The notes under the pieces are model-generated. The model worked only from the letters and a program-made list of their open reading frames with translations, was not told the origin of the DNA and did no database searches. A stretch of DNA of 64,000 nt, taken from Perkinsus olseni. Its lineage: Eukaryota > Perkinsozoa > Perkinsida > Perkinsidae. The stretch spans positions 1 to 64,000 of the forward strand of contig JABANP010000198.1 of NCBI GenBank assembly GCA_013115135.1, written 5' to 3'. Shown here piece after piece: positions 8,577 to 55,255 of the stretch. Position 1 is the first letter of the stretch; every line of letters starts with the position of its first letter. The translations under genes were made by a program, and so were the position numbers.

Positions 8577-8594
8577 GGTTCAAGTTACTACTAC

Positions 8595-12291: not shown

Positions 12292-12294
12292 TTC

Positions 12295-16620: not shown

Positions 16621-16735
16621 CTTCTTACTCATACGTGGAACACAAGGCCAAAGGGAGCTTGTGGAATGGATCTAATGAAAGAGCTATTGCCCAGACTACT
16701 CTGCACGCATAAACATAGACGGAGCGTAACACAGA
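16621..16735 (+). mobile_element. R3 short repeat copy
   Basis: Contains CTTACTCATACGTGGAACAC, AAGGCCAAAGGGAGC, CCCAGACTACT and ACGCATAAACATAGACGGAG. It is similar along its length to the copies at 8743-8858 (opposite strand) and 44155-44275. It is not flanked by R1, so the family moves on its own. Confidence 0.7.
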
Positions 16736-18308: not shown

Positions 18309-19092
18309 GTCTCGGTGTACGCGCGCTGAGGCGGAGCGTTCCAGCCCGTGGCAAAATGCCCTTCTGTCGCGCTTCTGGTGTTCTGGTTATTATTATCCTC
18401 ATGAGTTTGTTGATCGTTCCCATTCTCTTCTCGGGGAGCGGAAGCCGGGGAATCTTCCGCGGCTTCGAGGCTTCTACTTTTCGTTTACATAAGGCGAGCT
18501 TTATTTCCTACAGCTGCTTGCGTTATTCCAGTTAAAAAGTGTTCGGAAAACTGAACACTTGCACCGATCCAGCATGGCTTGTCGGGGCGCCAAAGGAACA
18601 GACAGCAGGGAAGCAAGGATTCTCACGCGGGTCAACATGCACCCATCGAGGTAGACCACCTGTAGAGGAGGGTCAATCGCGAAGGTTGTTGTGCCATTCG
18701 GGTGTATCGGGTGACATAGAACGCACACATAGGAAGAAGCGTGGTAAGCCATGTAAGGTTTCCTGGCTTCTCGAACTGACTACTCGAGTGGTAGGTGTCA
18801 CCATGGTTGGTGTCACCACCAGCCAGTGGTGAACGTTACTGAAGCAGCAGGCAACAGATGTTTTCAAAATCATTTAGATGACTCGGACTGGTGCGAACCT
18901 TCCCCAATACTTTTTCGGACTGAGCCGAGTGGCGTGTCTCTCCGCAGTGAAGGCCAGTATCAGCACTACAAGGCCCCATTGCACATGGAAACTGGGGACA
19001 GAGCGCCGAAAAGAGCATGTGTGCATGCGTGCTACCGCCGGAACCCTCCGCTTAGCGGCTGATCTACTGGCCTCTCAAGTTACTTACTGGTG
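18309..19092. other. Intergenic, no gene seen
   Basis: Spacer between copies 7 and 8. Frames are short and unrecognisable. GGTGTCACCATGGTTGGTGTCACC at about 18797 is a small direct repeat. Confidence 0.45.
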
Positions 19093-34840: not shown

Positions 34841-35138
34841 CATAGCTGTAAATAGAGACTCCTACCACAAGCACCCTTCCTCTCCTTTACAGGTCGGGTA
34901 TTCCGGGGTCTCAGCGGTCTCTTTGCCGCCCTCGCCCTCGTTCGGGGCTTCACACCAGCACGCCCGATCGATGTCTCAACGCTTAATGTAGTCGATAAAG
35001 CAGTACCAACTCCTGTCGTCTCACCACTGGCTGGAGGGGGGCGGTCCGAGTAGACTAATACTGTGCAGCTCAGCGTTGGTGTGACTGGAGTTGGCCGGGA
35101 GATGGTCGCTTTAGGAGGGCCTTGTTCCTTCTTTCAGT

Positions 35139-36893
35139 ATGATTGGTAAATGCAACCGCGGTCTATCGACGACTCTGATGCGTCTCCTTCACACCAGTTC
35201 AAAGCGGGTGGGCAGTCGGAGTTTACTACTCGAAATCGGCGGCTGTCGAGATCCTGAGACGCTAGGGGATGTAATTCATCGGAAAAATGCGGATTTCGAG
35301 CGCATCCACTGGATCACCGCACTGCGAAGATTCGCCCAATTGAATCCTGACCATCTCTCCTCGGACACTCGGCTCACTCTCAAGGTATGCCTCTCCCTGC
35401 CGGTCCGGAATTTGGATTTTCGAGCGGTTTCGGACCTAGTCTGGGCGTTGGGGACGCTGGGCTCATCCCGCGCCGCCGCGCAGCCGTTTGTCGACCATTC
35501 GGTTCGCCTTGTGCGCCTCTCGGCTGCCTCACCGGATCTGCAGAGGGTCGCGGCTCTCCTGGTGGGGATCGCCCGAGGGAAGTTCGAGCGGGGCTGTTTG
35601 ATGCTGGCCCTAGAGGATCGTCTCTGTTGCGATGGATCTTGGAAAGGCCGCGATGTGAGCCTCTGTCTGTGGGCGTTGGGAAGATTCTCGTACGAAGGGA
35701 AGTTGGTGGATGTACTGGCAGACTGGGTGACGCAAGCGGGGCCCTCGGGGATGAGCGAGCAGGATTGGAGCGTTGCCCTGTTCAACTTGGGCCGGCTCGG
35801 TCGATTTGACCTCGCGCTGGTGCCGAGGGCCAGCGGTCGTATGAACGACTCTCGGAACATAGCGACACTATTGTGGTCAGCTGGTCAGGCGGAAGGAGGT
35901 GCTCGAATTTTGTGGCGCGCGGTCAAGGATCATTATGATGTTCTGTCGGACCGCCTGTTACCGGCGGACATTCCTCAGGTTATGTGGGCACTCACGAGAA
36001 TCGACAACTCGAAAGCACTCGGGACTTTGGCGCTCCGACTTGCCGAGAAATTAAAGAATAGTAATTGGGTACCCATGAACCGCCTAGAGATCAATAACGT
36101 CGCCTATGGTCTCCATTGGACGGGCGTGATGGACTTGCCTCTGTATCAGTGGCTACACGCGTTGATGTCAGCGCATTTAGTCAAACTACCAGCTCGGAAG
36201 GCAAGCTCAGGGGTGATGCGAAGGATTCCTGAGGAGGTAGTAGACGGGACGACGGAGCCATTGGTGGTGTACAGCGGACTGGGTGGGGTGAGTATTGTGT
36301 ATAAGCCTAACGCTTGGACGACTGAGATGACGCAGAGCTTCTTGGGGGAATCTTTGGTACTTGCGCATCGGATAGATTTTGGAACATCGGGGCCGCTGAT
36401 GGGGACGACGTCGGGAGCGGAGGAAGCGGTATTGGCGTTGCAGCAGCAGGCGGGTTTGGTGGTTAAGAAATACTGGTGTTTGGTGGAGGGAATTCTGATG
36501 GAAAAAGAGGGAAAAATCGAAGCGAGGATTGAGAATCTGGAGACTTGGTGCGTCGTATCTGAGGATGGCAAGCCGGCTGTGACGAAGTATACTGTGAGGA
36601 GAGAGTTCAAATCCGTGGGGGTGTCTTTGGTAGAATGCCGCCTGCTGAGTGGGCGAAAGCATCAGATCAGGGTTCATATGGCCTCGTTGGGCCATCCGCT
36701 TGTAGGCGATCCATGGTATAATTCGGAGACGAAACTCGACCTAAGCGCGGGGAGAATCTTCTTGCACTGTCATAAGCTAGAGTGGTACGACCTTTATTTG
36801 GCGGAGGAGCGGTATGGGGTGGAGGTGCCGTTGCCGAGGGATCTCAGGGATGTCATGAGTCGAGTTGAAAGGCTGGAAAATTCCGTCGGATGA
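35139..36893 (+). CDS. Helical-repeat/RluA-type pseudouridine synthase fusion
   Basis: A 584-residue single-exon gene. The ATG sits one base after CTTCTTTCAG, a strong splice acceptor, which fixes the start. The N-terminal 330 residues are alpha-helical repeats with recurring LVWALGTLG, LCLWALGRF and VMWALTRID motifs, like the HPR/FASTK-type RNA-binding repeats of alveolate organelle proteins. The C-terminal 220 residues form an RluA-family pseudouridine synthase. HRIDFGTSG places the catalytic Asp at residue 413, LLSGRKHQIRVH lies at about 503-514, and GHPLVGDPWY follows. The likely role is isomerising uridines in mitochondrial or plastid RNA, with the repeats giving target choice; that is inference. 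The first 20 residues (RGLSTTLMRLLHTSSKRVG) fit an organelle targeting peptide. Confidence 0.85.
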   Translation: MIGKCNRGLSTTLMRLLHTSSKRVGSRSLLLEIGGCRDPETLGDVIHRKNADFERIHWITALRRFAQLNPDHLSSDTRLTLKVCLSLPVRNLDFRAVSDLVWALGTLGSSRAAAQPFVDHSVRLVRLSAASPDLQRVAALLVGIARGKFERGCLMLALEDRLCCDGSWKGRDVSLCLWALGRFSYEGKLVDVLADWVTQAGPSGMSEQDWSVALFNLGRLGRFDLALVPRASGRMNDSRNIATLLWSAGQAEGGARILWRAVKDHYDVLSDRLLPADIPQVMWALTRIDNSKALGTLALRLAEKLKNSNWVPMNRLEINNVAYGLHWTGVMDLPLYQWLHALMSAHLVKLPARKASSGVMRRIPEEVVDGTTEPLVVYSGLGGVSIVYKPNAWTTEMTQSFLGESLVLAHRIDFGTSGPLMGTTSGAEEAVLALQQQAGLVVKKYWCLVEGILMEKEGKIEARIENLETWCVVSEDGKPAVTKYTVRREFKSVGVSLVECRLLSGRKHQIRVHMASLGHPLVGDPWYNSETKLDLSAGRIFLHCHKLEWYDLYLAEERYGVEVPLPRDLRDVMSRVERLENSVG

Positions 36894-40940: not shown

Positions 40941-41129
40941 CTACCATTTCGGCTTGCACATGCAGTCGCGCGAGAGTGGCACGTACTGGCAGGAAAAACC
41001 GGAGGGGCAGTCGCCACATTTGCCCCCGCAAACGTTCCCCAGGGCACGGAGTCGGGCATCGCACTGTGGGAGGCCAGACAGCAGGGCGAAGTGGAAAATG
41101 GTGATGAAGGAGAGGTAAGTCTTAGCCAT
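40941..41129 (-). CDS. Secreted six-cysteine mini-protein A
   Basis: A 62-residue single-exon gene. Residues 1-25 (MAKTYLSFITIFHFALLSGL...) form a signal peptide, followed by the family mark QCDARLRALG. The mature tail has six cysteines spaced C-x3-C-x2-C-x5-C-x8-C-x-C (first Cys at residue 34) and ends KPKW. The frame is open upstream, but ATG 41129 matches paralogues B, C and D exactly. Upstream, CCACAG precedes GTTTTTAACATTACTATGG, a slightly diverged version of the leader in the other copies. The signal peptide is conserved and the mature loops vary, as in secreted effector or defence-peptide families. The fold is probably a small disulfide knot, the function unknown. Do not confuse it with the longer frames running through it. 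Confidence 0.75.
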   Translation of the reverse strand: MAKTYLSFITIFHFALLSGLPQCDARLRALGNVCGGKCGDCPSGFSCQYVPLSRDCMCKPKW

Positions 41130-41178
41130 AGTAATGTTAAAAACCTGTGGTGGATAATCGACAGCAGCCCGACTCAGT
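41130..41178 (-). promoter_or_regulatory. Conserved upstream cassette of mini-protein A
   Basis: On the minus strand: TACTGAGTCGGGCTGCTGTC, GATTATCCACCACAG, then leader and ATG. It aligns with the same positions before genes B, C, D and E. It probably holds the branch point and 3' splice site of an upstream intron or of spliced-leader addition. Confidence 0.5.
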
Positions 41179-41262
41179 ACCTCACAGTGAACCAGGTGCA
41201 GGCCGCCCCCAGAAGGCGTGACGTGACGGGGGCCATGCAGACAAGCCGGGCGAGCGAGGACG

Positions 41263-41500
41263 TGCACTATAACTCAGTACAGTACGGCTATTCGAGACGG
41301 GGCTCAAAGGAAGCCTTCCTTAGGAAGGTAAAGCGGTTTTGAAACCGGACTCGAGATGAGCTCGGGGAAAACTGACCTCGTTGCGAATTTAGCGTGAACG
41401 TAGGTTCAGCAGCATCACAAACAACGGACATGTTAACGGAGACGAACGCACGTACAGCGAGCAGCAAAAGCGCACAAAAAGCGAGGATGTCACTAAAGTG
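41263..41500 (+). mobile_element. R1 element copy
   Basis: It starts TGCACTATAACTCAGTACAG and ends near GTCACTAAAGTG. The core GAGACGGGGCTCAAAG is present, with a small local duplication (CTTCCTTAGGAAG) not seen in the other copies. It lies just upstream of mini-protein gene A. Confidence 0.75.
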
Positions 41501-41789
41501 AAGATGGATTTGCCAGGAAGTTATTCCTTATGGCTATACCATTTGTGGGAGCGCCTCAGCTCAACATGAGAGGGAAGAAGAGCTGTCGCGGCCGGCGGTA
41601 GACGACGACAGGCAGACGATTAGCTTTATGATGCACGCGTACGCAGTTGTGAGCTGACTCTACACCATTCAGAAATATATTTGGCGAGTGAGGCTGCCTT
41701 TACTGAGTATGCTCGAAATTGGTGTCCCTAGCGGCGGGATGGATCATGGAATTGCCTCATGGTAAGATAAGTCTAGGATATCATTGACC

Positions 41790-41945
41790 ATTGGTCCCGC
41801 CGCTAAAATGACTTTCTCATTCGCCTGATGTCCCTATTTCCATGGTACCGCCAATTCGCTGTCTCAACTCGCTTATGTGATATTCTCTGGCACGGAATAG
41901 ACGGCCTGACTCGCCAAATAGACTTGTGAATGGTATAGAACGAGA
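41790..41945 (+). repeat. Single-copy relative of the 4-kb minisatellite element
   Basis: It reads CCGCTAAAATGACTTTCTCA, GCCAATTCGCTG, TCTCAACTCGCTTATGTGAT and AATGGTATAG in the same order as 3985-4640, but with only one internal unit and without the ACA run. It shows what the element looked like before the tandem expansion. Confidence 0.7.
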
Positions 41946-42362
41946 CATGGCTGTGATCATATTGACTGTGAACGGCGGCTAACACTCGAGCTGCGACGGC
42001 AGTCCGCTGGTAGCCCTGTTGAAGGTGGGTGTATGTTGCTTCTCCGTTGTTGCTCATAGTCAACACAAGGCGAGGACGAGTGTAAAGTCTCCTACTTGGT
42101 TCTTTTCGGGGGGCGGGAGTATTAGCTATGCACGCATGCACAAGATGACCGACGCGCAATGAGTAACAGCGTATGAGGTGCCAAGAGGAAGACTTCGCAT
42201 CGCAACACTCATGCGAGGAGTCTCGTCGAAGCTCGACGGTCGAACTTAGGAAGAGAAACAGGTCGACTGTGGGTTATCATCTGTTCCGCGATGATGAGCT
42301 CACGGAGCAACCGATTATTGAAGTACATCCGGGCTCGTAGTGGATGCGCTCACCGACAATCT

Positions 42363-42398
42363 AGTAGGACCAGAACGGGCCATGATTCTGGTCCTACT
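42363..42398. repeat. 13-bp inverted repeat
   Basis: AGTAGGACCAGAA and TTCTGGTCCTACT, 10 bases apart, are exact reverse complements. It is a terminator-like or small hairpin structure in gene-poor DNA. Confidence 0.8.
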
Positions 42399-43160
42399 AC
42401 GACCCGTTGCGATGAGAGCTGCCTCGAAGGTGCAGCCTCGGAGTAGCATCAGTTGGGTATTCACTCTGGTCAAGGTGGGTGAAGGAGTCGGCGAGGGTGA
42501 CCCCTCCGAGCCGTGCTGAGAACACTGTTGCGAGTATCGTCCACCGATGAGCGAATTCACCGTTGGCAATGCCGGAGTTGATCGGAATAGATCAACTATC
42601 ACTTAGCGCAAGAGCATGATAAGGCTGCTACAGAGAACATTGGCACTTCGTTGTGAGTGGTCCGGTGTGGTAAAAAGTATCATGGTAATCGTGGCAGTCT
42701 AGTGGTTGATGAACACCACAGGGAAAGGAAGCGGAAGTTCATCTTCTCTGTTGGTGGCATGTCGCCTGGGACTGAACTCAGTGCCATTAAGGTCCCAAGA
42801 AAAGAGCTTACTTGAATATGAAGAAGTCAGGACTAGGAAAAAGTCTAGTGGTCGGACTACTTAACTGATCTCGGAGATGGCGCTTGCACGCTTATTCAGG
42901 TCTCTCCTTGGAGCGAGGTGGCGCGCAGGCCCCGTTGTCTAGACATAGACAACGAAGAAAAATATGAGACTCTTTTATCATAGACTATTATTCGATAGGG
43001 TCGACTAGTAAAATGGCCATTGCTCGGCCCGGGAAAAACGCGCGTGCACCACAGTAGCACGCGAACACATTGAGTGTAAAAGGAGAAAGACTCATATCAT
43101 ATCGCCACCGTCGTAGAACCGATGCCCTGAAACAATCTTCCATAACAGAGTGCAGATCAT
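42399..43160. other. Intergenic, no gene seen
   Basis: There is no supported coding sequence or repeat that I can assign in this stretch. Confidence 0.4.
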
Positions 43161-43299
43161 TGATTAGCGCTAACATTCTTGTCATGGTGCGAATCAGTTG
43201 GCAGTGGCATCTTCGGGCCGGATAAGAGATGAGGTCGACGGAGCGTAGTGGATCGCCATGTGGTCGCTGCTTTAGGCTGGGCTAATGCGACTTGCCATC

Positions 43300-43840
43300 G
43301 TGAAGCAATGATACTACAAAGGGTACTCGGGCTTGTCGAGTGCTTCCGACCGGAGTCTCCTCTGGATAAAATTGAAGAAATTAACGGAAGATTGTACGCA
43401 AGTCGCATGGACGTCGTAGCTCGAATCGCGGCGTCTCGAACGACTTCCGCCGCATCGCACTCAGCATCGATGAGTTCGAGCTCTGGTCTCAAGTAATTGG
43501 AGATGGGGGATGATCCGAGTTCGCCCTTGCACACGATGGCGCACTTGTCTTCAGCGTCTCCCGCCAGGACGGCACCACTATGACTGTCCCGGGGACAGTG
43601 TCCCCACCGGCAGGGTTGACAGCAAACTCCGCGGCCTAAACGACGGCATCCGCCGTTTCTTCGCTCTTAGCGGCCTTGCTGGCAATACTGGCAGCATCGG
43701 CCTCGCTGATGGCTGACATATCGGGGATCGTGCAGGGCGGCCGCATGATCATGCATCGCTGGCAGGCGGCAACAGCACGCTTGAAGCGGGTCGCTTCCCT
43801 GCAACTCTCGTAGCAAGAGAAAGAATCCCGATAGCCTGAC
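43300..43840 (-). CDS. Possible minus-strand gene, fragments only
   Basis: Two minus-strand stretches look coding. One runs from about 43835 to 43636: YRDSFSCYESCREATRFKRA, AACQRCM, AISEADAASIASKAAKSEE, stop. The other runs from about 43582 to 43300: GDAEDKCAIVCKGELGSS, YLRPELELIDAECDAAEVV, RDAAIRATTSMRLA. An intron of about 60 nt between them is plausible, but I could not find a join that keeps the phase. No start codon or family was identified. Confidence 0.25.
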
Positions 43841-44154
43841 CAGCACACCGAGCGTCCTGTGTAATGAAGGCCTTAGGCTTTACTGAGGGTGACCGTCGCA
43901 GCAGGGGACGTAGTCACACAATCCTGCACTACTCAAGCTAGTCGTTTCCGATGATGATACTAATCACCAACTTCTCGCGCGTCGCTCGTAGTGAACTGAG
44001 AGGCTCATCTCGAGTGTGAGTCCTTTTTGTACCCTTGCCATGGCACCATCAATAGCTGTGCTCTGTGACTACGTTGCAACGACCGTTTCACGGGGAAGAT
44101 ACGTTACACAGGGATCGGCAATTGCTGGTGCTCCGGGATTAGGCAAGGGTGTTA

Positions 44155-44275
44155 TGGTCTTCTCACTTGTACGTGGAACACGAGGCCAAAAGGGGCTAGT
44201 AAGATGGATCTTTATAACGATAGCTAATCCCCAGACTACTATTCACGCATAAACCTAGACCGAGCGTAACAGAGG
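44155..44275 (+). mobile_element. R3 short repeat copy
   Basis: TGTACGTGGAACACGAGGCC, AAAAGGGGC, CCCAGACTACT and CACGCATAAACCTAGACC parallel the copies at 8743 and 16621. It stands alone, without R1 around it. Confidence 0.7.
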
Positions 44276-44425
44276 GGCGGCCAGCGCAAAGCAATGGTAC
44301 AACCGAAACGAACGGTACTCGGACCTCGTGGGTCGCTCCGTAACGACTCACGAATCCTCTGGGGAATGGAGAAAATAGTTAATGGAAGACCGTCGCGGGA
44401 AGTTGGTTGTGGTTCTCGCAGAAAA

Positions 44426-44617
44426 CTACCAATTCGGCTTACAGATGCACCCAAGGGCTTCGAGAGAGAAGTCACAGATGTACCCGGTGGGGCATGTACT
44501 GCAGGTTTGTGGGCAGGCGGAACTCCCGAGGGCACGCAGGTAGGCATCGCACTGCGGGGGACCAGATAGCATGCCGAAGCAGATAATGGGGATCAGGGAG
44601 AGGTAAGTCTTAGCCAT
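44426..44617 (-). CDS. Secreted six-cysteine mini-protein B
   Basis: A 63-residue single-exon gene starting at ATG 44617. It has a signal peptide (MAKTYLSLIPIICFGMLSG), then PQCDAYLRALG, then a tail with the same C-x3-C-x2-C-x5-C-x8-C-x-C pattern (CPQTCSTCPTGYIC, then CIC), ending KPNW as in gene A (KPKW). Directly upstream TTCTAG precedes GTTATCATTAATATGG, identical to the leader in C and D. It lies 3.3 kb from A and about 1.1 kb from C, all three on the minus strand. Confidence 0.75.
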   Translation of the reverse strand: MAKTYLSLIPIICFGMLSGPPQCDAYLRALGSSACPQTCSTCPTGYICDFSLEALGCICKPNW

Positions 44618-44661
44618 ATTAATGATAACCTAGAATGAACAGCTGTCACCCCCGCTCAGTC
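44618..44661 (-). promoter_or_regulatory. Conserved upstream cassette of mini-protein B
   Basis: GACTGAGCGGGGGTGACAGC, TGTTCATTCTAG, then GTTATCATTAAT before the ATG. It keeps the GACTGAG-GGGG block, the pyrimidine-rich tract and the AG found before the other members. Confidence 0.5.
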
Positions 44662-44939
44662 CTGGGGGCGCTAGCTGGGGACGCTAGCAGGTAATTGGTG
44701 TACGCGAGCCCATGAGCGTCTATCGTGTCGTTGTTCGGTACGGCAGAGCTGGCTTCGAGGTCTGACGATAGCACCGTATCCAAGCTCTAAGCGCGCATCG
44801 GATAGAATTGTCTATGTAGATTCGGTACACGGAAGTGGTGAGGCCTCGGGGCTGGATGACACGTCTAGCGAGGCTAGTAGCCTGGTGTACGCGCCATGCT
44901 AGCGCGGTCACCGCGCCCGTTCGGGCCTCAAACAGGGGT

Positions 44940-45140
44940 GATCGATTATACAAATTAGCCCGATTAGCGTCACTGAACGTTTCACGTTATACACCACTCA
45001 CTGAGTGGTGAGCGAGTGGCATAAGAGTAGGATAGCCGGTGAAGACTGAGTGGCACTCGGTGTTAGTGAATGATCATCCACTTCGGCCTGTCACACTTGA
45101 GCAACCTGACTACTCGCTCATAAGCAGCTTCTAGTGGATT
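44940..45140. repeat. Segmental duplication, copy 2
   Basis: Partner of 40304-40460, with an extra insert around 44995-45050 (CACTCACTGAGTGGTGAGCG...). It lies downstream of mini-protein C, as copy 1 lies downstream of A. Confidence 0.75.
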
Positions 45141-45544
45141 CTGTTCGTGGTGGCCCTCCAGCTGAGAGGATAGCAAGCCTTCATCTCTGCGCGGGGCAAT
45201 TATTCTCTAATTGCCGCAGCCGCATTTACTCTCCTTTTGACCCCCGGCTTTCGGGTTGCCCCGGAAACTAGCCCAATCCTGTGCAGCAGCCATCGGGTTC
45301 CGGGAGTTTGGGCTTGTTTTTCGGCCTCGCAAGGACCGCTCAATCGTCAGCAATGGTAGATGAGATAGATCAAGGGTCATCATTAACCACCACTGAGCGC
45401 AAGGGAATGACGAAACTGCTACAGAGACTGACTTTGACTAAAAAAACAGTAAAGGATTGTCTTCGGCAGCTCCACTCAGTGCCTCACAGTGGACCTGGCG
45501 GAGGCGTGACGTAGACCATGGAAACGGGTCCGGGTGGGTGTGGA

Positions 45545-45571
45545 TGATGATGATGATGATGATGATGATAA
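45545..45571. repeat. GAT microsatellite
   Basis: About nine tandem GAT/TGA triplets, followed by AATTACTGC. It is a simple repeat downstream of mini-protein gene C. Confidence 0.95.
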
Positions 45572-45693
45572 TTACTGCATCTGGTGCACTCGTGCCTTTT
45601 GAGACCTTCTGATGGAGAGCCTCCTCTACGTAGAGAATGGAGGAAATCGTCCAGAACGGAAGAATCGCGGCCACGGCGTTGTGGCTCGCATGA

Positions 45694-45885
45694 CTACCGC
45701 TCATCTTCACAGATGCATTTGAAGATTTTGAGATTAAACCCACAGTCGTACTTGAGGGGGCATTTACTACAGGTGCCGGGGCAGAGAGATCTTCCGAGGG
45801 CACGGAGTCGGGCATCACACTGTGGGAGGCCAGATAGCAGGGCGAAGCAGATAATGGTGATGAGGGAGAGGTAGGTCTTAGCCAT
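45694..45885 (-). CDS. Secreted six-cysteine mini-protein C
   Basis: A 63-residue single-exon gene. The signal peptide MAKTYLSLITIICFALLSGL is followed by QCDARLRALG and a tail CPGTCSKCPLKYDC...CICEDER, keeping C-x3-C-x2-C-x5-C-x8-C-x-C. The mature tail is lysine-rich in the middle and acidic at the end, so its charge differs from A and B. The frame is open 15 codons further up, but ATG 45885 and the leader GTTATCATTAATATGG after TTACAG fix the start. The 3' flank shares the segmental duplication with gene A. Confidence 0.78.
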   Translation of the reverse strand: MAKTYLSLITIICFALLSGLPQCDARLRALGRSLCPGTCSKCPLKYDCGFNLKIFKCICEDER

Positions 45886-45930
45886 ATTAATGATAACCTG
45901 TAATGGATAGTCGACAGGAACCCCACTCAT
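45886..45930 (-). promoter_or_regulatory. Conserved upstream cassette of mini-protein C
   Basis: GATGAGTGGGGTTCCTGTCG, ACTATCCATTACAG and the leader GTTATCATTAAT. It is the closest match to the cassette of gene D. Confidence 0.55.
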
Positions 45931-46473
45931 CTCTCACAGGACTGAACTTGTTATCAGCTGGGAGGGGCGAACAAGCGATCTAAATGGCTCAGAGAGCATG
46001 CGTGTTGTCACTGATGTAGATGAGGTAATCTATAGTATTTGATATCATTGCCGCCCGACGTACAATGGTAGCTCTTTGCAGCGGCTTGGACGAGTACACA
46101 CGTGAGGTGAACGCGAGTATATAGCTGAACCTTAGATAGCTAAGGGCACGTGCCTCTCCTAGTTTGGGGCTGCTCACTTCTTCCTGGTCATCACTCTCAC
46201 CTCATCGGCCGACCTCGTTAGTGGCCTACCACCGCATATCGTCCGCTCGCGATACCACTACACAATTGGACACCGGAGCTGCTGCTTTGGTATACGCGCA
46301 GACCGTTCGTGCCAGCTCTACCAGTATGCGCGCCATCGCGATTCGTCAGTCAGCGTCCCCTCGAGCTTCCTTCGAGTAGAGCCGTCTCGAGTGACTTCCG
46401 CCACAGTCATCGATTCGCCTCCGATGAGGTCTCATCTCGAAAACCAGAGATGGGTGATTCTAGTTTTCCTCGC

Positions 46474-46528
46474 CACTCAGTTGCTGTCCCATAGTGCAAA
46501 GTTTGCACTATGGGACAGCTACTGAGTG
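46474..46528. repeat. 27-bp palindrome at an R1 end
   Basis: The arms on either side of the central base 46501 are reverse complements with a single mismatch. The inner 18 bases of each arm pair perfectly (GCTGTCCCATAGTGCAAA). It covers one end of the reverse-oriented R1 copy. Confidence 0.92.
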
Positions 46529-46720
46529 CAAACCACCTCCATTGCTACTGCGTAGCCACATTAAGCTTTGCTCGCTTACGTACGTTACTCCCAGTAAACA
46601 CGTGCGTTCCTCGTCGCGCTTTCGGGCATACGTCAACACCAAATCCGCGTCGATATCAGTCTTCTTCCTCTTGGAGTCCCGTCTCAAATAACCACACTGT
46701 TACTCAGTTGATAGTGCACT
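46491..46720 (-). mobile_element. R1 element copy, reverse orientation
   Basis: Read on the minus strand it begins AGTGCACTATCAACTGAGTA, continues GTGTGGTTATTTGAGACGGG and GCGACGAGGAACGCACGTG, and ends in TGCAAA at the palindrome. It is a full-length, diverged copy. The adjacent 14-bp inverted repeat at 46728-46758 lies right next to its other end. Confidence 0.7.
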
Positions 46721-46727
46721 GTCACAG

Positions 46728-46758
46728 TGCGAACGTGTGCACTGTGCACACGTTCGCA
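46728..46758. repeat. 14-bp perfect inverted repeat
   Basis: TGCGAACGTGTGCA and its exact reverse complement, separated by CTG. It abuts the R1 copy, so both ends of that copy are bordered by palindromes. Confidence 0.92.
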
Positions 46759-47443
46759 TGACCTCGCTCAGAATGTTGACTCGGGAAGCCGAGGGGAGTT
46801 GTGATTGTTGAGGCACACGGTCCATCTGTCCCCTAGCGCTACTAGCATCTGGTCCTTCTTCATTCGTAGAGATTAGGCTTCTAATCAGCATCACTCATGT
46901 CTGGTTTGAGTGAGAACAGGATTTCGCGGGTGTGACTCTCTTCTTCAGTCGTTGATACAAATTCGTAAAACAGCAGAACTGTCGACGTAAAGGGGCAGGA
47001 AACACCTTCAGCAGCACCGCCTCTCAGGCAGCATGCGCTACGAGTGATGAGTTTCCAGTGCTGCAGCCTTGAACCTTACATTAACATTTACAGTAACAAC
47101 AAGAGTACGAGAGCGGGCCACCGTGATAGTAGCTCCAACTGCATCCTCCGGTACGAACACTGTTCATTAATACCGATCTCGGTTGCCATTCATCGCTCGG
47201 CTGTAGACCATCTCATCCATCTCGTTAGCTCCCCGCAATGAGTCAGACCATCAGTGACTCCTGGCCGCGGGCTTCAACCCATCTCCCGATAGAGGTAAAG
47301 TACATGGAACAGGTAGACATGAAGAGAGGGCGAACGGAGACGTATGGAAATCAGTGTGGCTCGAGGGATATCAGAGGGGCGAGCGAAGGGTCCCTGAGCT
47401 CGTCAACGAAATTCCACCGGTCGAAGACTAAGCCTTTCAGGCA
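46759..47443. other. Intergenic, no gene seen
   Basis: No supported coding sequence before the signal-peptide exon of the next gene. Confidence 0.4.
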
Positions 47444-48989
47444 ATGCGAACTCTCTTCGTCATCGCTCTTAAGTTCATACTCGCTGTGCATACCGTTGGA
47501 GCCTTAGAGGCGTGGAAATCGACGAAGGCGTTCCTAAAAACTAAAAAGAGCAAAATTTGGAAGTCGATTAGAGTAAGATACGGTTTAAGGTCGCATCATG
47601 CGAAGTTCTGTACCACCGATGGTAGGGGACTCGGAGCAAGACTCGGGGCGAACTCGAAGGTCCTGAGGGAGAAGGCACTCAGCTCCAGCCGCTGGAGGAG
47701 AAGACAGCTGCTCCCGTCATCCCATCAAGGATGGTGGTAGGAGCGGCAAGTGTCACGACTTGGTGGCACCGTCTATTTTTCCTAGGGCTTCTGCGCTCTC
47801 GCTTACACCTGCCCGCTGGGCTCTGAGAACCGGGACTTGGTAGGCCGTGAACGATCCGGCTCCGTGGCAGGGTGTGCTTCAGGGGGGCATCGTCGCTTAT
47901 GCTAAGGAACTTGCTTACGGCGAAGGCGCGTCTCCGGTTGAATACGCTCTGGACTACCTCTACTTCTGGGATAGCGTGTAAGAGCATGGGCACGGCCTCG
48001 CTAGAAGCTTTCTAGAGGGGCGCGTGAAGTGTTGCTAGTAGCGCTTCTAAACTCGGTTTACGAGAGTCGGAGCGCTGACCGCCCGAACGTCTGTACATGA
48101 TGTTTGTGAATTTCCCCTGATTCTGGGATGACGAGTTAGGAAGATAAGAGGCTCTCCGATCGGTGCATCCCTCAGGCAACACAGCAAAGACATGAGCCGC
48201 GTGAATGTGCTTCTTGACCTCTCTGATATCATACCGCATGGGCAAGCTAAGATTCCAAAAGATACGTGCCATGAACAAATGAAAAATTGGGCTGCGAAGG
48301 GGCTGCAGCGGGTTCAGCAGGAGGGGAGCAAGCCGGCTTCCGAGTACCTAGAAAACGGGCGAGCTTCACCGCCGAAACCGACTGAACTTATTGAGCACTT
48401 CGCTTCGCTAGAGCAGGAGGCCGCGAAGGGCTATTACGAGGGGAAAACAGCCGCGGGGTTCCTTTGGGGCTTCGTGCATGATGAGTTGAACGAACAGAGA
48501 AAGGAAGGCGAGCTCTTCCTGTGTCCAGCCGTCACTGCAGTAGGACCGTATTCTGGGAAGTCTCTAGGAAACCTATCTGCCTTCAGAATGTTGGAAGCGA
48601 CAGCGTGACGATCACTCTTGGAGCGAAGGGATCGGGAGAGTTGAAAATACACGAAATAGAGATCATCGGGTCCAGGTGAGGAAGACGAATGGCGCTTCTC
48701 CAGCAGGCAACCCTCGGACTGAGAGGCGACAGCTTTTCTTGTATTCAGGGTGTGGAAGTGGGGCGACGTGCATGGCAACAACGTGGATATGCTCCACAGG
48801 ATTGAAGGGAGCGCTACTCGCGTGAAGGGACCTCGAGGCGTGGAGACTTGCGAGAAACAACTACTCGAGTACGGAAAGGCGGTCAGGAAGCAGAAGAAGC
48901 CAGCTGAGAAAGATGATGTTGATGAGCGGGAGAGGCAGTTGCAGGAGACTGTCAAGTTGATTTATGATACTCTGATCGATGGCATATAG
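47444..48989 (+). CDS. Novel secreted protein, four exons
   Basis: Exons 47444-47572, 47844-47977, 48185-48604 and 48749-48989 join in phase at GT-AG introns (271, 207 and 144 nt) to give 307 residues. Exon 1 is a signal peptide (MRTLFVIALKFILAVHTVGA) followed by a lysine-rich stretch. Exon 2 reads VNDPAPWQGVLQGG and VEYALDYLYFWDS. Exon 3 holds LLDLSDIIPHG, IEHFASLEQEAAKGYY, FLWGFVHDELNEQ and LFLCPAVTAVGPYSG. Exon 4 reads VWKWGDVHGNNVDML and ends in a charged coiled-coil-like helix (DDVDERERQLQETVKLIYDT). I recognise no family. If exon 4 is not used, exon 3 ends at TGA 48606. It lies among the mini-protein genes, which suggests but does not prove a secreted-protein neighbourhood. Confidence 0.55.
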
Positions 48990-49757
48990 ATGTTGCTGTA
49001 CGTGAATGTCCTCATGTTGGTGTAATGGTAGATGTGACGCAGTAGTTGCGTGCAGTGGTCACCCTGATGCGATGGCTTCAGGCAAACTTCGCCTCCCTTC
49101 CCGGTTACCGAGCTTGAGGCGATCGTGGACGTCCCTCACCCCTGGTTGTGACGCACAAATCACAACTCAGGTGACCTAAGCTCTCTTCAACGCTGCTGGG
49201 TTGACGCGCGTCCACTTTACCGAGAGTAGCTAGCGCGTAGCCCAATTAGCTGTGGCAAGCTAAAAATACGCTTCTCGCCAGCTATATGGAAACAATTGCA
49301 CTCTAGTGACGATATAGTGGCGCCTATAGTATGCGCTATGTAACAGCTACAGCCTGGTTCGGTACTACTCAGCTGTTAGTTCACTGCTACTACGTATCAT
49401 TAGTATCAGACAGCCGTCTGACTTCACTATGCGCCTTGCACTCGCGTGCATGAGTATACGTGCTACACTAAGCTCAGTTTGGCTCAGTAAGCTGTAAATT
49501 ACACTATTGCTTAGCTCCCATCCAGGCTAATTTTACCTCTCTTTGAGCCCCGTCTCAAATAGCCACACTGTACTGAGTTTTAGGGCACAATAGTGACGAA
49601 CGTACGACTGGGCTGCTCGACCAAGCTCCTAAGGTTCATCACGGCTCTAAGGGGAAACGAAAACGCCTCTCTAGACGAGAGGGTTCGAGTAGCGGCTATT
49701 CAGTAGCCACCTAGCACTCAGTTGTACTGCGTACTCTTCCTCATTCCTGTTGAGAGA
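48990..49757. other. Intergenic with an R1 fragment
   Basis: No gene is supported. At 49545-49600, reading the minus strand, GTACAGTGTGGCTATTTGAG and ACGGGGCTCAAAG mark a truncated R1 copy. Confidence 0.5.
49545..49600 (-). mobile_element. R1 element fragment
   Basis: About 55 bp match the 5' end of the R1 family (GTACTGAGT, GCTATTTGAGACGGGGCTCA on one strand or its complement on the other). The rest of the element cannot be recognised. Confidence 0.65.
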
Positions 49758-49804
49758 GACTGAGTGGGGCTGCCGACGACTATCCTTCACAGGTTATCAT
49801 TAAT
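49758..49804 (+). promoter_or_regulatory. Conserved upstream cassette of mini-protein D
   Basis: GACTGAGTGGGGCTGCCGAC, GACTATCCTTCACAG, then GTTATCATTAAT and ATG. It is almost the same as before gene C, even though the two genes are on opposite strands. Confidence 0.55.
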
Positions 49805-49987
49805 ATGGCTAAGACCAACCTCTTCCTCATCACCATTATCTGGTTTGCCCTGCTATCTGGTCCCCCGCAGTGCGATGCCCAACTCCGTGGCTTGGGGAAG
49901 CTCGTCTGCCCCCATTTCTGTGCGCTTTGCCCCCCTCCTCGTAGATGTGTCTATGATGCTGATATTTTCGATTGCTTATGCCTCTGA
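49805..49987 (+). CDS. Secreted six-cysteine mini-protein D
   Basis: A 60-residue single-exon gene on the plus strand. The signal peptide MAKTNLFLITIIWFALLSG is followed by PQCDAQLRGLG and a tail CPHFCALCPPPRRC...CLCL with the C-x3-C-x2-C-x5-C-x8-C-x-C pattern. The mature part is shorter at the C-terminus than in A-C. The start is fixed by the shared leader GTTATCATTAATATGG after TTCACAG. It faces genes A-C in the opposite direction. Confidence 0.78.
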   Translation: MAKTNLFLITIIWFALLSGPPQCDAQLRGLGKLVCPHFCALCPPPRRCVYDADIFDCLCL

Positions 49988-50799
49988 TTGATTCACTGTG
50001 GCGCTGTGCACCCGGGCGGGGGGCTGCCAATTTTTTAGCCAGGCGTCGCATACTATCCATGCTGGTCAGTTTTGTTCGATTCTCTCATCAAACGGTTCTC
50101 GCGCATGAGCAAGCTTTAGTGGGGCAGGCAATGCCTGCCAGGCATCAGGCATCATTCTAGTAGCAGTGCTGATTCGGGTTCAGGATAAGTTAATCACGCT
50201 TAGCCCTAAAATGCGACTAGCCGGGCGTCACCGACGAATGCACTTGGTCGAAGTAGCGATAGCATTCATTGTCTATGGGGGGCTCTGCAGAGGAGGTATC
50301 TTTCCTACGCATCATCAACATGAGAGAACCTAAGATTCGCTTCGACTGTGTACAGTGTATAGCCCCATGCGTGCTTATTCAATGATGTTGTTGGGAATAT
50401 TTTGTTGGTTATTCAATGACGTGTGCGTGTGTACCGAGATAGACTCTCCTCAGGGTTCATAGTGGGAGTTCACAGCGCAGAACGGGAAAAGCTAGTTCCA
50501 GATCGAAATCAAGTGCCTGCCTCTAGTCTGCTCGATCGCCTAAAGTGTCACCAGAGCCGGTGAAAAGTCGCGCCACTCGCTGGCATCAGTGTAATCGGGC
50601 AGCCCTCCTCGGAAGTCTCAAGACTGTCCGCTGTGTTCGAACTTATGGCTCATACCGTCGATACTACTGTATCGTAGGGATGCTTTCAATCAATGCGAAA
50701 GTCGGTGAGCAGTAGGCAACATGCCGCGGAAATGATCCGTGCTGCATTCAGGTGTACACGAACACTGTCACACTGAGCGGCCCTAGTGTTGCGAGGAAA
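49988..50799. other. Intergenic, no gene seen
   Basis: No supported gene between mini-protein D and the decayed copy. Confidence 0.4.
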
Positions 50800-50843
50800 C
50801 GCTCGGGGCTGCTGGCCGCCGCCCCTTCCGAATTATCTTATAT

Positions 50844-50975
50844 ATGCTTCGAGCCTACCTCTCTCTGATCACCATCATACTCTACATTACCGTTTTAGTG
50901 CAGTTCAGAATGCAAGTGCCTCCCCCACGCGGGGTACGCGTGTCGTCCTATGAAGGCGTACGAGCACATAGCTAA
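50844..50975 (+). pseudogene. Decayed mini-protein gene (copy F)
   Basis: ATG then LRAYLSLITIILYITVL, matching the family signal peptide (AKTYLSLITIICFALLS), then a 25-codon tail without any cysteine pattern and a TAA. Upstream, GGGGCTGCTGGCCG and AATTATCTTATATATG match the family cassette and leader, but the splice acceptor AG is replaced by CCG. Loss of the acceptor, of QCDxxLRALG and of the cysteines marks it as a relic. It is too short to be found by length-filtered gene calls. Confidence 0.65.
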
Positions 50976-51525
50976 ATCTTCGCTTGCTAGCTGATCAACA
51001 CGAGATGGTCTGCTCTGAATCAGAGCCTTTGGTCTCGAGCCTGGGCGACATAAAAATCATTCGAGTGCGAGAATTTCCAACAGTCAGTACTGTCGGTGAG
51101 ACAGAGGCAGAGACAATGCTCGAAGCTGGTGGTGTGAGAGAAAGAAGGGGGACCCTTCGAGGTGACTGGGCAGCACAGCGACGCGGCGCAGAGGCTGCCG
51201 TGGACTGAAACAACGACTACACGACAATCTGGGTGAATGATTGAGGCCCTCAATTCGAGGGAGTTATCGACGATATGATAGCTCCAACCGGCAGCTATAC
51301 TGGCACAACTCTGAAAAGACGCTGCACGCGCGATGATATCCGTGCATAGGACGCCATTACTATATAGTAAGTCGGTATGAGGCATTCAACCTGAAGCGGA
51401 ACGGTAAGGTACGAGCGCGGAGAGCATCGACCACAGCGGCCAAAAAATCCTCCCTGTCACGATGGGAGTGACCACCAACTCAGACCATCAGGAAGTGACA
51501 AGAAACTCTACAACACACCATGTCA
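50976..51525. other. Intergenic, no gene assigned
   Basis: A plus-strand frame around 51003-51208 (MVCSESEPLVSSLGDIKIIR, then VREFPTVSTVGETEAETMLE) has coding-like composition, but it has no recognisable family or splice context. I leave it unassigned. Confidence 0.3.
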
Positions 51526-52128
51526 CTAGTCGAGCATATCTATCGTCTCCTTCTTCACCGCCGAGGCCCCGCGCTGGGCGGCAATCCGAGAGCTTCGACG
51601 AGTCTTCGACCCGGAGGCCTCGGTTTTCACTACCACCACTTCCGCTTCAGCTGGCGAGGACTTTCTGCTGGTCGCATTGCTCTTGGTTCTGCCGCTGGCT
51701 GCTGCTGACTTAGCCGCCACTCTCTTGGACTTGTCAGTCTTGGCGACCTTGGCGGCGGTGGTCTGGCTTCCTGTGGACTCCAGTGTCCTTTTGGGAGCAA
51801 CGGACAAGTCGATCGCAGCCATCTCCTGAGTGTCTTGTGAAGGGCTGGGCGGGCTCGTGCTGACATAGATGTTGATGGTGGGCAACTTCATGGTCCCCAC
51901 CACCGCCCGACGAGCCAGCTCCACAGCATCCTTCCAGGAATCTCTGTGGAAGAGGCATCTGTCGCCAACATCATCGACATAGGTGAAGTCCAGCTTCGCT
52001 TCGCCGCCCAACTCGGGCCACTGATCGGCCACAATCCCGACTAGCTTAGCGTGAGTATCGACAGAGTCCGGCAGCAGGCGTCGGGTCTTCTGGTTCCGGA
52101 AGTGGAACTTAAGGGCGACTTCGACCAT
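51526..52128 (-). CDS. PB1-like domain protein with basic C-terminus
   Basis: A 200-residue single-exon gene starting at ATG 52128. Residues 3-92 read like a PB1 (ubiquitin-fold) domain: ALKFHFRNQKTRRLLP, a central helix (DTHAKLVGIVADQWP), KLDFTYVDDVGDRCLFHRDS with the acidic turn, a helix DAVELARRAV, and a closing strand TINIYVST. PB1 domains pair with each other in signalling and autophagy scaffolds. The rest is lysine, serine and alanine-rich (KTDKSKRVAAKSAAASGRTK, then GSKTRRSSRIAAQRG), which fits nuclear targeting or nucleic-acid binding. The domain call is by pattern, not by a search. It may be a small nuclear adaptor; no partner is visible nearby. Confidence 0.6.
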   Translation of the reverse strand: MVEVALKFHFRNQKTRRLLPDSVDTHAKLVGIVADQWPELGGEAKLDFTYVDDVGDRCLFHRDSWKDAVELARRAVVGTMKLPTINIYVSTSPPSPSQDTQEMAAIDLSVAPKRTLESTGSQTTAAKVAKTDKSKRVAAKSAAASGRTKSNATSRKSSPAEAEVVVVKTEASGSKTRRSSRIAAQRGASAVKKETIDMLD

Positions 52129-52551
52129 GTGGGACTCCCTTCACTCAACTACCATGCGACAGCTATTGCCCCGAGAAGCGAAAACATAGAAGTTCGGGCG
52201 TTCAGTCCCAGGATGGTTGTCGTCCGCGTCTCGATGTTCTCACTGGCTCTCTCTCGTGAACTGCTCCGTGCGATAGAGCTTCACTGTTGTCCGGAGCAAT
52301 TGTGCTGATCACGCGGAAGTGAGTGCTTCAATGTCCTGATGAGCTACATCTTACAATCCACCCGGGAGCGTTGTCTGGCGTTCGAAAGCCGACCGCGATC
52401 ACAGTGCAATCCTAGTCTGCTTTTGAACAGCCTCGCTAGCTGAGGTCCACGTAGTGAAAAGATATCATCAGAAGTCCAGTACCCTATGCGATGGAGCCTG
52501 TTAACTTTCACAACAGTAGCTTCAACAGTTGGAGCGTCCCCAAAAACAGCA
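52129..52551. other. Intergenic, no gene seen
   Basis: Short spacer between the PB1-like gene and the terminal exon of the next minus-strand gene. Confidence 0.4.
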
Positions 52552-53628
52552 TTAATGGCCTATTGCTACCGAACTCGCGTGGGGCCGTTCCAACAGGTGT
52601 TCTCTCACGTCCACCAGTTCGTCAGCCGGTGGTGTGTCTCTCGAGTAGATCATTGTCATGAACTCGGTGGTGATGCACTCCGCAAGCCAGGCACTATCCG
52701 GCAAAAAGTCGCTCTCAATCATGGAGTACCTTATAGGAGTGTCGCTGAGTGGGTGTATTTCCCCTTATCATTCGAAGTTTGCGTACTCTCTCGACTTTCG
52801 CAGCTGTTCACCGCTGTTCACGGCTGTTTTCATTTTTTGCCGCTGGAGGGAGAAGCCTGCCTTCATCCCTCTACTACGAAACTCTTAGAACTCACTTGCA
52901 TGTGCATATTCACTGCGGTTTCAGCTTCGCAGTAGCTTCGACCCATTATCCACTCGTAGAAAACAACAGCTTAGTTTAAGTATACAAAATAATGAGCACG
53001 ACATGAAGCAGGGTTAGGAGAGAGCGATAAAGCTCTCCACGTTGACGATAAGCTACGGGTTCTGTGGACGATGCTGCCGAAGTACAGCAGACGCAGACCG
53101 CAGAAAGAGGCGCACGCCAAAATCTTCCGTCAAGGGAGGGATGTCTTGCCCCGTTATTTCTTCTAGAGTATCCAGCTCGTCAATCAACTGCGATATAACT
53201 ATCACGCATTTCTCTGTGTCGTCTGGGTCCGTGCCGTACTCGAGGCTGTTGATGCACTCATCAGGGGTGTCGAGCAGTCCCGCTGCTTCGAGCTTCTTAC
53301 CAAATTTTTCGCAACTCTCAGATCTCCAACGCAAACGAACAGTGTGAACATTGAGGTTGCTCACGAAGGGGTACTCTCGGACGTAATAGGGCAACACGAC
53401 TTGTATGACCCCAAAGTCGAGCCCTTGGAAAAGTATATGGACCTCATCCACGCCACTCGAGTTTGTGAATCTTACAGCCACGCTTTGATTCTGCGACCTT
53501 ACAGCGAAAACTCGACCGGAGAGAGAGGGAGAGTCGGCGTCGTTCCTTGGTTGCAACAATGGCTGGCCGCTTGACGGCAGCACCCCCAGGAGCAGTGGCA
53601 GGGCAACGATGCTGATGGTGGCAGCCAT
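52552..53628 (-). CDS. Novel secreted protein, two exons
   Basis: Exon 1 (53628-53057) and exon 2 (52744-52552) join in phase through a GT-AG intron of 312 nt to give 254 residues. The protein starts with a clear signal peptide (MAATISIVALPLLLGVLPSS) and has N-glycosylation sequons (NQS, NSS). Exon 1 continues VAVRFTNSSGVDEVHILFQG, VLPYYVREYPFVSNLNVHTV, RLRWRSESCEKFGKKLEAAG. Exon 2 adds DTPIRYSMIESDFLPDSAW, CITTEFMTMIYSRDTPPAD and ends AIGH. If unspliced, exon 1 would end at a TAG 4 bp past the donor, giving 191 residues. I do not recognise the family. Confidence 0.55.
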
Positions 53629-54614
53629 TCACAGAGGACAGAATTCTTCAGGAAAATGGGGATGTGCTCTGTGGTGCCTTAAGATGAACCGTTTATAGAC
53701 TCGTACAACGAAGAGCTGCAAGCCAGGCGATACCGCATCATGCGTTTGCCATCAAGCCGAGACGGGACATCGAATCGCACGGGAATTCCGTATGTCGAGC
53801 GATGCAGGCCGGTCACGGGTCCGCCGCCACCGCTGGCTCTGAGAGCGTAGGGCGGCACCGGCGAGCTCGGAGGGGAAAGACCTTCTGTACGAAATCGGGA
53901 CGACGATTCGACAATACGTAGCCTAAGGCAACTGCTAGCATTAGCTTATACAAGAGCAACGCGACCGGCCACTACACTGAGACCACTGGTCTGAGCCTCT
54001 CAGACCCGTACATGGTTCAAGTTAGCAGCGAGCACGCTCGAGAGTAGCATGGTCCCTTCTGTGGCCTTCTTTTCGTAGTGGAATTGCGCTTGCTCTGTGC
54101 CAGTATTCGCTCCCGAGTCAAATGCTGATCTCGCCGCAGACTATCCTCAACGTCTGCTTGTGCAAGTATTTCCAATGGCGAGCCAAAGCAACTGCAACAA
54201 TGGTGTGAAGAAAGAGCTTCTCGGTTCCTTACACAAGATATTGTGTTTCCCTAGTTAAAACGGCGTTTGCGTCAAACTTACACACACCAGATGGTGATCG
54301 AGCGTCGCTCGACGAGCGAACTCACACCGGCGCACACAGTATGGACGTCGCCCGAAAAGGGCTTGTTGGTGTTGTTTCTCATGGAGAACGGGAAGTCAAG
54401 ATACGTCGAAAGGTTTATCATAAGTTCTCCTCGGGGGTATTAAGTATTGGCTGTGCACGTCTGCACAAGAGGATCAGCGCATAAGAGTAACAGCGGCACA
54501 CCTCTCGAGTCTTCGTGTCCCCGCGTCACGACGCTTTGTGGGTGCATCATGCAGTAAAGAGGGTATGCTCTACTGCTACATAGACCTCTAGCGCTATGAT
54601 GCTCCGTGCGCACC
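53629..54614. other. Intergenic, no gene seen
   Basis: No supported gene or repeat that I can assign. Confidence 0.4.
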
Positions 54615-54852
54615 TGCACTATAACTCAGTACAGTGTGGCTATTTGAGACGGGGCTCAAAGAAAGGTGAAACCAGACTCGGGAGGAGTTCGGGAAAACTG
54701 ATCTAGTTGTTGGATTAATGGTGAACGTATGTTCCATAGCATGACGAGGAACGCACGTGTTTGCTGGGACGAACGTACGTACCACGAGCAAAGGCGCACA
54801 AAGAGCAAGGTAGGTACGTAGCAGCAATGAAGGTAGTTGTCACTATAGTGCA
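54615..54852 (+). mobile_element. R1 element, best-preserved copy
   Basis: A 238-bp unit with inverted ends TGCACTATA at 54615 and TATAGTGCA ending at 54852, flanked by CACC on both sides (a possible 4-bp target duplication). It contains the core GAGACGGGGCTCAAAG and GCATGACGAGGAACGCACG. It encodes nothing. Inverted ends, small size, several copies and a target duplication fit a MITE-type DNA element. Confidence 0.75.
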
Positions 54853-55014
54853 CACCATATCGCCTCAGCTGACAAGCCCCTGCGCTGCGTGATCGAGATG
54901 ATAGCTATGCACTCGCGTATGACCGACGGCCACTCCACCCAGGCCTTGCTCCTCATGTTGCATTCGGTTGTAGAATACAATCCTACTTCCATGCTCACTC
55001 TCCTAGTCTTGTGA

Positions 55015-55060
55015 GGGACTGTGTACAGCCGATGGCTGTCCCTTACAGATTATCATTAAT
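55015..55060 (+). promoter_or_regulatory. Conserved upstream cassette of mini-protein E
   Basis: GGGACTGTGTACAGCCGATG, GCTGTCCCTTACAG and the leader ATTATCATTAAT before the ATG. It is the most diverged of the functional cassettes, but the acceptor and leader are intact. Confidence 0.5.
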
Positions 55061-55255
55061 ATGGTTCAGACCCACCTCTCCCTAATGGCTATCATCTGCT
55101 TCGCCGTGCTATCTCGCACCGCGCAGTGCGATGGCCACCTGCGTGCTCTAGCTGGTCCATATAGTTGTCCTACGAGCTACTGCAGCGGCCCATGCCCCTT
55201 GGGTCAATATTGCCAGCTTCAATGGTACGGTGAATGTCACTGCGTTGACCTCTAG
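55061..55255 (+). CDS. Secreted six-cysteine mini-protein E
   Basis: A 64-residue single-exon gene, the most diverged member. The signal peptide MVQTHLSLMAIICFAVLS is followed by QCDGHLRALAG and a tail with six cysteines spaced C-x4-C-x3-C-x5-C-x7-C-x-C (CPTSYCSGPCPLGQYC, then CHC). One loop is one residue longer, the next is one longer and the fourth one shorter, so the disulfide frame is kept while loop sizes drift. It is 14 kb from gene A on the opposite strand. The ATG directly follows the family leader. Confidence 0.75.
   Translation: MVQTHLSLMAIICFAVLSRTAQCDGHLRALAGPYSCPTSYCSGPCPLGQYCQLQWYGECHCVDL

What the first reader, a model, noticed from the sequence alone, without database searches (positions are those of the whole stretch)
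40941..55255. A family of secreted six-cysteine mini-proteins spread over 14 kb
Five ORFs of 60-64 codons (40941, 44426, 45694 on minus; 49805, 55061 on plus) share a nearly constant signal peptide (MAKTYLSLITIICFALLSG), a QCDxxLRALG mark, and a variable tail with C-x3-C-x2-C-x5-C-x8-C-x-C (slightly shifted in the fifth). The constant leader with variable mature part is seen directly. That such a pattern is typical of secreted peptides under diversifying selection (effectors, defence or mating peptides) is general knowledge. The function is unknown and I recognise no described family. Most are too short for standard annotation.
Basis: partly seen in the sequence, partly recalled or inferred. 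Interest (0 to 1): 0.92.

Follow-up and report, generated by a model that had tools for sequence, protein, structure and literature searches.

The report
Clam parasite peptides sharing one leader
A single-celled clam parasite carries a few dozen tiny, probably secreted proteins that share nearly the same leader but have different cysteine-rich bodies, and the leader seems to be copied between genes rather than kept constant by selection.

Summary
The five ORFs exist as described. They belong to a larger family: 38 intact ORFs (alleles included) and at least 3 degenerate copies on 13 contigs of a 61.5-Mb genome that I identify as Perkinsus olseni. No Pfam match for the five. A profile search found three relatives, all 'hypothetical, partial': two P. 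olseni, one P. marinus. Each gene has a shared cassette (about -30 to +90: probable splice acceptor, 12-nt 5'UTR, signal-peptide-like leader, LRAL) followed by a short mature part, with exactly six cysteines in 34 of 38.

The inferred diversifying selection is mostly not supported. Between 23 loci the leader is conserved even at synonymous sites (pS 0.35 against 0.73). Between alleles it diverges like the flanks (4.7% against 5.5%, p 0.44), while the mature part is the most conserved (2.5%, pN/pS 0.30). I therefore infer non-allelic gene conversion of the leader and purifying selection on the mature part. One small class shows excess nonsynonymous change, and the best single conversion tract is only moderately significant. 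Secretion is inferred from sequence; a host-directed role is a guess; no expression data were seen.

The parts
40941..41129 (-). member 1, 62 aa, Cys spacing 3-2-5-8-1; leader = 41055-41129
44426..44617 (-). member 2, 63 aa, spacing 3-2-5-8-1; leader = 44543-44617
45694..45885 (-). member 3, 63 aa, spacing 3-2-5-8-1; leader = 45811-45885
49805..49987 (+). member 4, 60 aa, spacing 3-2-5-8-1; leader = 49805-49879
55061..55255 (+). member 5, 64 aa, spacing 4-3-5-7-1; leader = 55061-55135; its allele on C98 differs at 7 of 75 leader bases
45886..45900 (-). member 3: CAG + 12-nt conserved 5' UTR (GTTATCATTAAT); probable splice acceptor
   Evidence: splicing itself is inference
44618..44632 (-). member 2: TAG + same 12-nt 5' UTR
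49790..49804 (+). member 4: CAG + same 12-nt 5' UTR
55046..55060 (+). member 5: CAG + near-identical 12-nt 5' UTR
41130..41145 (-). member 1: diverged form of the same acceptor/UTR block (not among the 18-mer matches)

Best explanation
The five ORFs belong to a Perkinsus family of small, probably secreted, disulfide-rich peptides. About 23 loci were distinguished here (38 intact ORFs with alleles), with presence/absence differences between haplotypes and some degenerate copies. The coding region is uninterrupted: a shared cassette of about 110-120 nt (probable splice acceptor, 12-nt 5' UTR, hydrophobic leader ending near CDA, then QLRAL) is followed by a variable mature part of about 34-44 residues ending in or near C-x-C. 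Shown: the family and its spread, protein-level constraint on the mature part, leader conserved between loci even at synonymous sites but not between alleles, and leader distances uncorrelated with mature distances over 23 loci. Inferred: the leader cassette is repeatedly homogenised between loci by non-allelic gene conversion, while each mature type descends on its own. Inferred with less certainty: the mRNA is trans-spliced at the conserved AG, the peptide is secreted and cleaved near CDA, and it acts outside the cell, most likely on the mollusc host.
For: Family; leader-specific 18-mer 36 matches against 0 reversed control, 29 of 36 at intact members. Relatives in P. olseni and P. marinus. 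Paralogue leader pS 0.345 against mature 0.734 over 23 loci; leader/mature ratio for alleles against paralogues 1.03 against 0.47 synonymous (P 0.02) and 2.71 against 0.49 nonsynonymous (0 of 20,000 draws); Mantel rho -0.06, p 0.70. Allelic leader not conserved relative to flanks (p 0.44), mature strongly so (p 5e-6). In 9 of 20 alleles the leader is nearer a paralogue than the own allele, mature 4 of 20. C98:57866 is paralogue-like at six of six informative leader sites and allele-like at the later informative coding sites. The P. marinus relative: mature 21/25 with C515_18098 but leader 13/25, best leader 21/25 with a member whose mature part matches 6/25. Mosaic identity in 4 of 6 compared pairs of a neighbouring oxidoreductase family.
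Against: The tract in C98:57866 rests on 6 of 11 informative sites inside the coding region (contiguity p 0.013); the upstream sites lie where the two loci already differ, so the smaller figure overstates it, and the direction (which allele was converted) is not settled. One allele pair has an identical leader (0/75, member 1, p 0.042 below its flanks) and another (member 4) is below its flanks, which are poorly aligned. Shared variants between loci do not separate leader from mature part (30 of 35 and 28 of 29, expected 19.7 and 23.0). Within classes leaders are somewhat closer (0.151) than between classes (0.219), and over all 38 sequences, alleles included, leader and mature distances correlate weakly (rho 0.086, p 0.02). 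Mature dS between paralogues is near saturation. No transcript, splice junction or protein was seen.
Confidence: 0.65

Rival explanations
1. One reading: the leader is kept constant by selection for secretion and the mature part is driven apart by diversifying selection, as in venom or effector peptides.
For: Only cysteines and a few sites are conserved between classes. Class II: pS 0, pN 0.063 at non-cysteine mature sites.
Against: Low synonymous divergence of the leader is not explained by selection on its amino acids. Allelic mature pN/pS 0.30 and least divergence of all segments.
Confidence: 0.12
2. The leader DNA is constrained in itself (RNA signal, codon use or regulatory element), without conversion.
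For: The last 10 bases before the ATG are very conserved (identity 0.85) and likely functional. Member 1 has an identical leader in both haplotypes.
Against: Between alleles the leader diverges like the flanks (4.7% against 5.5%) and allelic pS is equal in leader and mature part (0.057, 0.055).
Confidence: 0.15
3. Leader shuffling: the cassette was recently joined to different mature sequences by duplication, rather than homogenised in place.
For: Cross-class similarity stops near codon 30; one leader relic stands without a mature part (C140:55742).
Against: Mature parts share a common cysteine frame, so the whole genes look homologous; allele-level differences in the leader need recent exchange.
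Confidence: 0.2
4. Peptides act as self-signals (Euplotes-like pheromones) or as antimicrobials rather than on the host.
For: Small, cysteine-rich, variable, as Euplotes pheromones in another alveolate group (PMC9229436 passages).
Against: Many loci, not alleles of one locus; net charge mean +0.8, range -3 to +4, neither uniformly acidic nor strongly cationic.
Confidence: 0.3
5. A dispersed repeat with chance ORFs.
For: Copies are dispersed; an unrelated repeat of about 240 bp lies near several.
Against: 38 open copies that keep the cysteine frame although mature DNA differs by about 50%, synonymous excess, a mature type shared with P. marinus.
Confidence: 0.02

Closest known systems
Hypothetical partial proteins FOZ61_007584 and FOZ63_019529 (P. 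olseni) and PMAR000574 (P. marinus)
   Same: Same leader; mature subtypes matching C140 members, C113 and C515_18098 respectively by eye and for P. marinus
   Different: Partial gene models without a named function
Conotoxin-type hypervariable secreted peptides (recalled; no paper read)
   Same: Conserved leader, cysteine frame, variable mature part
   Different: No long pro-region; no general sign of diversifying selection here; no sequence relation tested
Euplotes pheromones (PMC9229436, passages)
   Same: Small secreted disulfide-rich proteins of an alveolate, variable outside the cysteines
   Different: Those are acidic, have a pro-segment, and are alleles of one mat locus; here many loci, near-neutral charge, no clear pro-segment
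Myticin-C of mussels (PMC3164099, passages)
   Same: Peptide family for which recombination or gene conversion is proposed
   Different: A host peptide; diversity there is highest in the mature part; no sequence relation tested

Membership tests
Any Pfam-A family | profile match above the curated cut-off | tested here: not met
   5 window members scanned; 4 with no match at E<=1, 1 with E 0.42, below cut-off
Conotoxin-like hypervariable peptide family | leader far more conserved than mature part between paralogues | tested here: met
   nt distance 0.226 against 0.500 over 38 sequences
Conotoxin-like hypervariable peptide family | positive selection on the mature part | tested here: not met
   overall; exception class II, 4 sequences
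Conotoxin-like hypervariable peptide family | secretion of the mature peptide | not testable with these tools
   no proteome; hydrophobic leader by eye only
Euplotes pheromone | alleles of a single locus | tested here: not met
   10 members on one contig, many with collinear alleles on C98
Euplotes pheromone | acidic mature protein | tested here: not met
   net charge -3 to +4, mean +0.8
Euplotes pheromone | helical fold | tested here: inconclusive
   model of member 2 has a C-terminal hairpin but mean pLDDT 59.8
CS-alpha-beta defensin or toxin (motif recalled) | C-x3-C between Cys 2 and 3 and C-x-C at the end | tested here: inconclusive
   23 of 38 have both; the window's 3-2-5-8-1 members do not
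CS-alpha-beta defensin or toxin | fold match to solved structures | tested here: inconclusive
Spliced-leader trans-spliced gene | spliced leader joined to the mRNA at an AG acceptor | not testable with these tools
   AG at -14/-13 in 27 of 38; no RNA data

The most novel reading that the evidence does not exclude
The shared cassette is a recombination handle: its short homology (acceptor, UTR, leader, LRAL) lets genes exchange pieces between loci and haplotypes, so that the parasite re-sorts its secreted peptide repertoire by gene conversion, an antigenic-variation-like system built on a secretion leader.
Probability: 0.12. Interest if true: 0.85.

Novelty: new variant of a known kind. Interest (0 to 1): 0.6.

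Why it matters
It gives a compact list of candidate secreted peptides, almost unannotated, in a mollusc parasite. It also shows that 'constant leader, variable mature part' need not mean diversifying selection: comparing alleles with paralogues reverses the usual conclusion here. If conversion is as common as two unrelated families in this window suggest, gene trees of Perkinsus multigene families may be mosaic.

Tried and rejected

Papers: ten searches listed, by title and abstract start, no paper on this family; four of them listed only part of what they found, and only open-licence PMC papers are held. Seen: outline and part 1 of one section of PMC9399869; passages of PMC9550989, PMC3101222, PMC2868825, PMC13388995, PMC9229436 and PMC3164099; all others as listings.

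Dropped before counts: L030 (another small family) and C515:6579 (no start) from the alignments from then on; C53, C61, C660, C54, C468 and C113 from the class I-IV set of 32; C515_708, C515_8242, C515_22515, C622 and C857 from the 23-locus set as probable extra haplotype copies (my choice). One search stopped on a division error and was redone. In one search three members with a short leader were cut 3 residues late, so their mature lengths read 37 instead of 40.
Full report
What it lies in. The window is C110:1-64000 of a eukaryotic genome of 61,483,535 bases in 968 contigs. The spliced-leader sequence of dinoflagellates and Perkinsus (recalled) has 137 matches at up to one mismatch, against 0 for the reversed control. 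The protein at 35115-36890 is 98% identical over 99% of its length to P. olseni FOZ63_000157 and 73% to P. chesapeaki FOL47_010582. I take the genome as Perkinsus olseni. Contig C98 is collinear with C110 from about 38.6 to 84 kb at 88-98% identity, as a second haplotype; C515 resembles a third partial copy of the 71-84 kb part with extra copies of some blocks.

Observation. All five ORFs exist with the stated leader, mark and cysteine spacing. None of the five has a Pfam match above cut-off.

Size of the family. One member as query gives 35 genome matches at E<=0.001. A five-member profile over the fetched loci plus one member first seen and read gives 38 intact ORFs on 13 contigs (listed). 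At least three copies are degenerate: C515:6579 without a start, C515:20959 broken by a frameshift, C140:55742 with a leader but no mature part. Counts are lower bounds, since the genome tool scores only its best candidates. Spacings: 4-3-5-7-1 in 14 of 38 and, with one extra Cys, in 2 more; 3-2-5-8-1 in 9; 4-3-6-7-1 in 5; 4-3-6-6-1 in 2; six others once each. Exactly six cysteines in 34 of 38. Two members of C98, near 41.0 and 45.7 kb, lie in stretches of about 1.9 and 0.6 kb that C110 lacks, so gene content differs between haplotypes.

The cassette. Before the ATG most members have (C/T)AG|GTTATCATTAAT or close forms. With the ATG this 18-mer has 36 genome matches at up to 2 mismatches and 0 for the reversed control. 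By position, 29 of 36 lie at intact members, 2 at degenerate copies and 5 elsewhere; three of those five were read and hold no member, two were not fetched. Ungapped identity of the 5' flank is 0.26-0.30 beyond -40 and 0.85 in the last ten bases. DNA matches between classes mostly run from -12 to -30 down to about codon 30. AG stands at exactly -14/-13 in 27 of 38. I read it as a splice acceptor, probably for the spliced leader; a short cis-intron is possible, since Perkinsus introns start at 39 bp (PMC3101222 passages).

Is it coding? In ten allele pairs the mature part has 14 synonymous and 15 nonsynonymous changes on 253 and 905 sites (pN/pS 0.30; synonymous excess p 0.0015). It is the least diverged segment between alleles: 29/1149 (2.5%), against leader 35/741 (4.7%), 5' flank 228/3649 (6.2%) and 3' flank 187/3902 (4.8%); mature against flanks p 5e-6, leader against flanks p 0.44, leader against mature p 0.013. 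So the mature part is under purifying selection between alleles, and the leader shows no special conservation there.

Why the leader is constant between loci. Over 23 loci the leader has pS 0.345 and pN 0.230, the mature part pS 0.734 and pN 0.471. Selection on leader amino acids does not lower pS. Constraint on the leader DNA would, but alleles should then be conserved too, and they are not: allelic pS is 0.057 in the leader and 0.055 in the mature part, and allelic pN is higher in the leader (0.045 against 0.017, Fisher p 0.0016). The leader/mature ratio differs between alleles and paralogues: 1.03 against 0.47 for synonymous (P 0.02) and 2.71 against 0.49 for nonsynonymous change (0 of 20,000 draws). 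Leader and mature distances are uncorrelated over the 23 loci (rho -0.06, p 0.70). In 9 of 20 alleles the leader is nearer a paralogue than its own allele; mature 4 of 20. The clearest single case is the allele of member 5 at C98:57866. It agrees with the paralogue at C98:69527 (about 12 kb away) at six of six informative sites from +12 to +90 and with its own allele at informative sites from +139 on. Inside the coding region this is 6 of 11 sites in one run, p 0.013; the p 2e-5 counts upstream sites where the loci differ anyway and should not be relied on. Which of the two alleles received the tract is open. The P. marinus relative shows the same uncoupling: mature 21/25 with C515_18098 but leader 13/25, while its best leader match (21/25, C98_48824) has mature 6/25. 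Eight oxidoreductase ORFs at 1960-20046 give a parallel: in 4 of 6 pairs compared, blocks of 93-100% nucleotide identity stand inside flanks of about 40-77%; the other two pairs show no such mosaic.

Results against this reading. Shared variants between loci do not separate leader from mature part. Leaders are somewhat closer within classes (0.151) than between (0.219), and over all 38 sequences with alleles leader and mature distances correlate weakly (rho 0.086, p 0.02). Member 1 has identical leaders in both haplotypes. Class II has pS 0 and pN 0.063 at non-cysteine mature sites (4 sequences), a hint of diversification in one corner. Mature dS between paralogues is near saturation, so those ratios are rough.

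Function. A hydrophobic leader ending near CDA, a short cysteine-rich mature part, expansion, haplotype differences and degenerate copies fit extracellular peptides. Net charge averages +0.8, against a uniformly cationic antimicrobial family. The model of member 2 (six-row alignment) suggests a C-terminal hairpin (strands 46-51 and 56-61, that part at pLDDT 74-80) but is weak as a whole (59.8) and matched nothing. A host-directed role is the most likely single guess; self-signalling and antimicrobial roles remain open. No paper on the family was listed by ten searches of the open-licence library (see Tried and rejected).

Noticed in passing
window 1960-20046: Eight medium-chain (zinc/quinone-type) oxidoreductase ORFs (one of them scanned with Pfam) with mosaic nucleotide identity in 4 of 6 pairs compared: 93-100% blocks inside 40-77% flanks, as expected from gene conversion.
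   Followed up: partly
window 54612-54860; also near 41260, 46566, 49531, 8344 and 8595: Dispersed repeat of about 240 bp, 42 matches listed genome-wide with 345 first-look candidates; several copies lie near members of the peptide family.
   Followed up: partly
L030:2656-2844 (C11:61298-61486): A second small family of cysteine-rich peptides with a hydrophobic leader and an SLRGLDG mark; six genome matches at E<=1, three of them on C11.
   Followed up: partly
C268:207896-235713 and C41:105064-118486: Arrays of spliced-leader matches, often about 1.6-1.75 kb apart on C268 and 3.35 kb on C41.
   Followed up: no
C515:1-28000 against C110:71.5-84 kb: C515 matches C110 at 91-96% but holds some blocks twice (C110:76636-77420), as if a third haplotype with local duplication.
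   Followed up: partly
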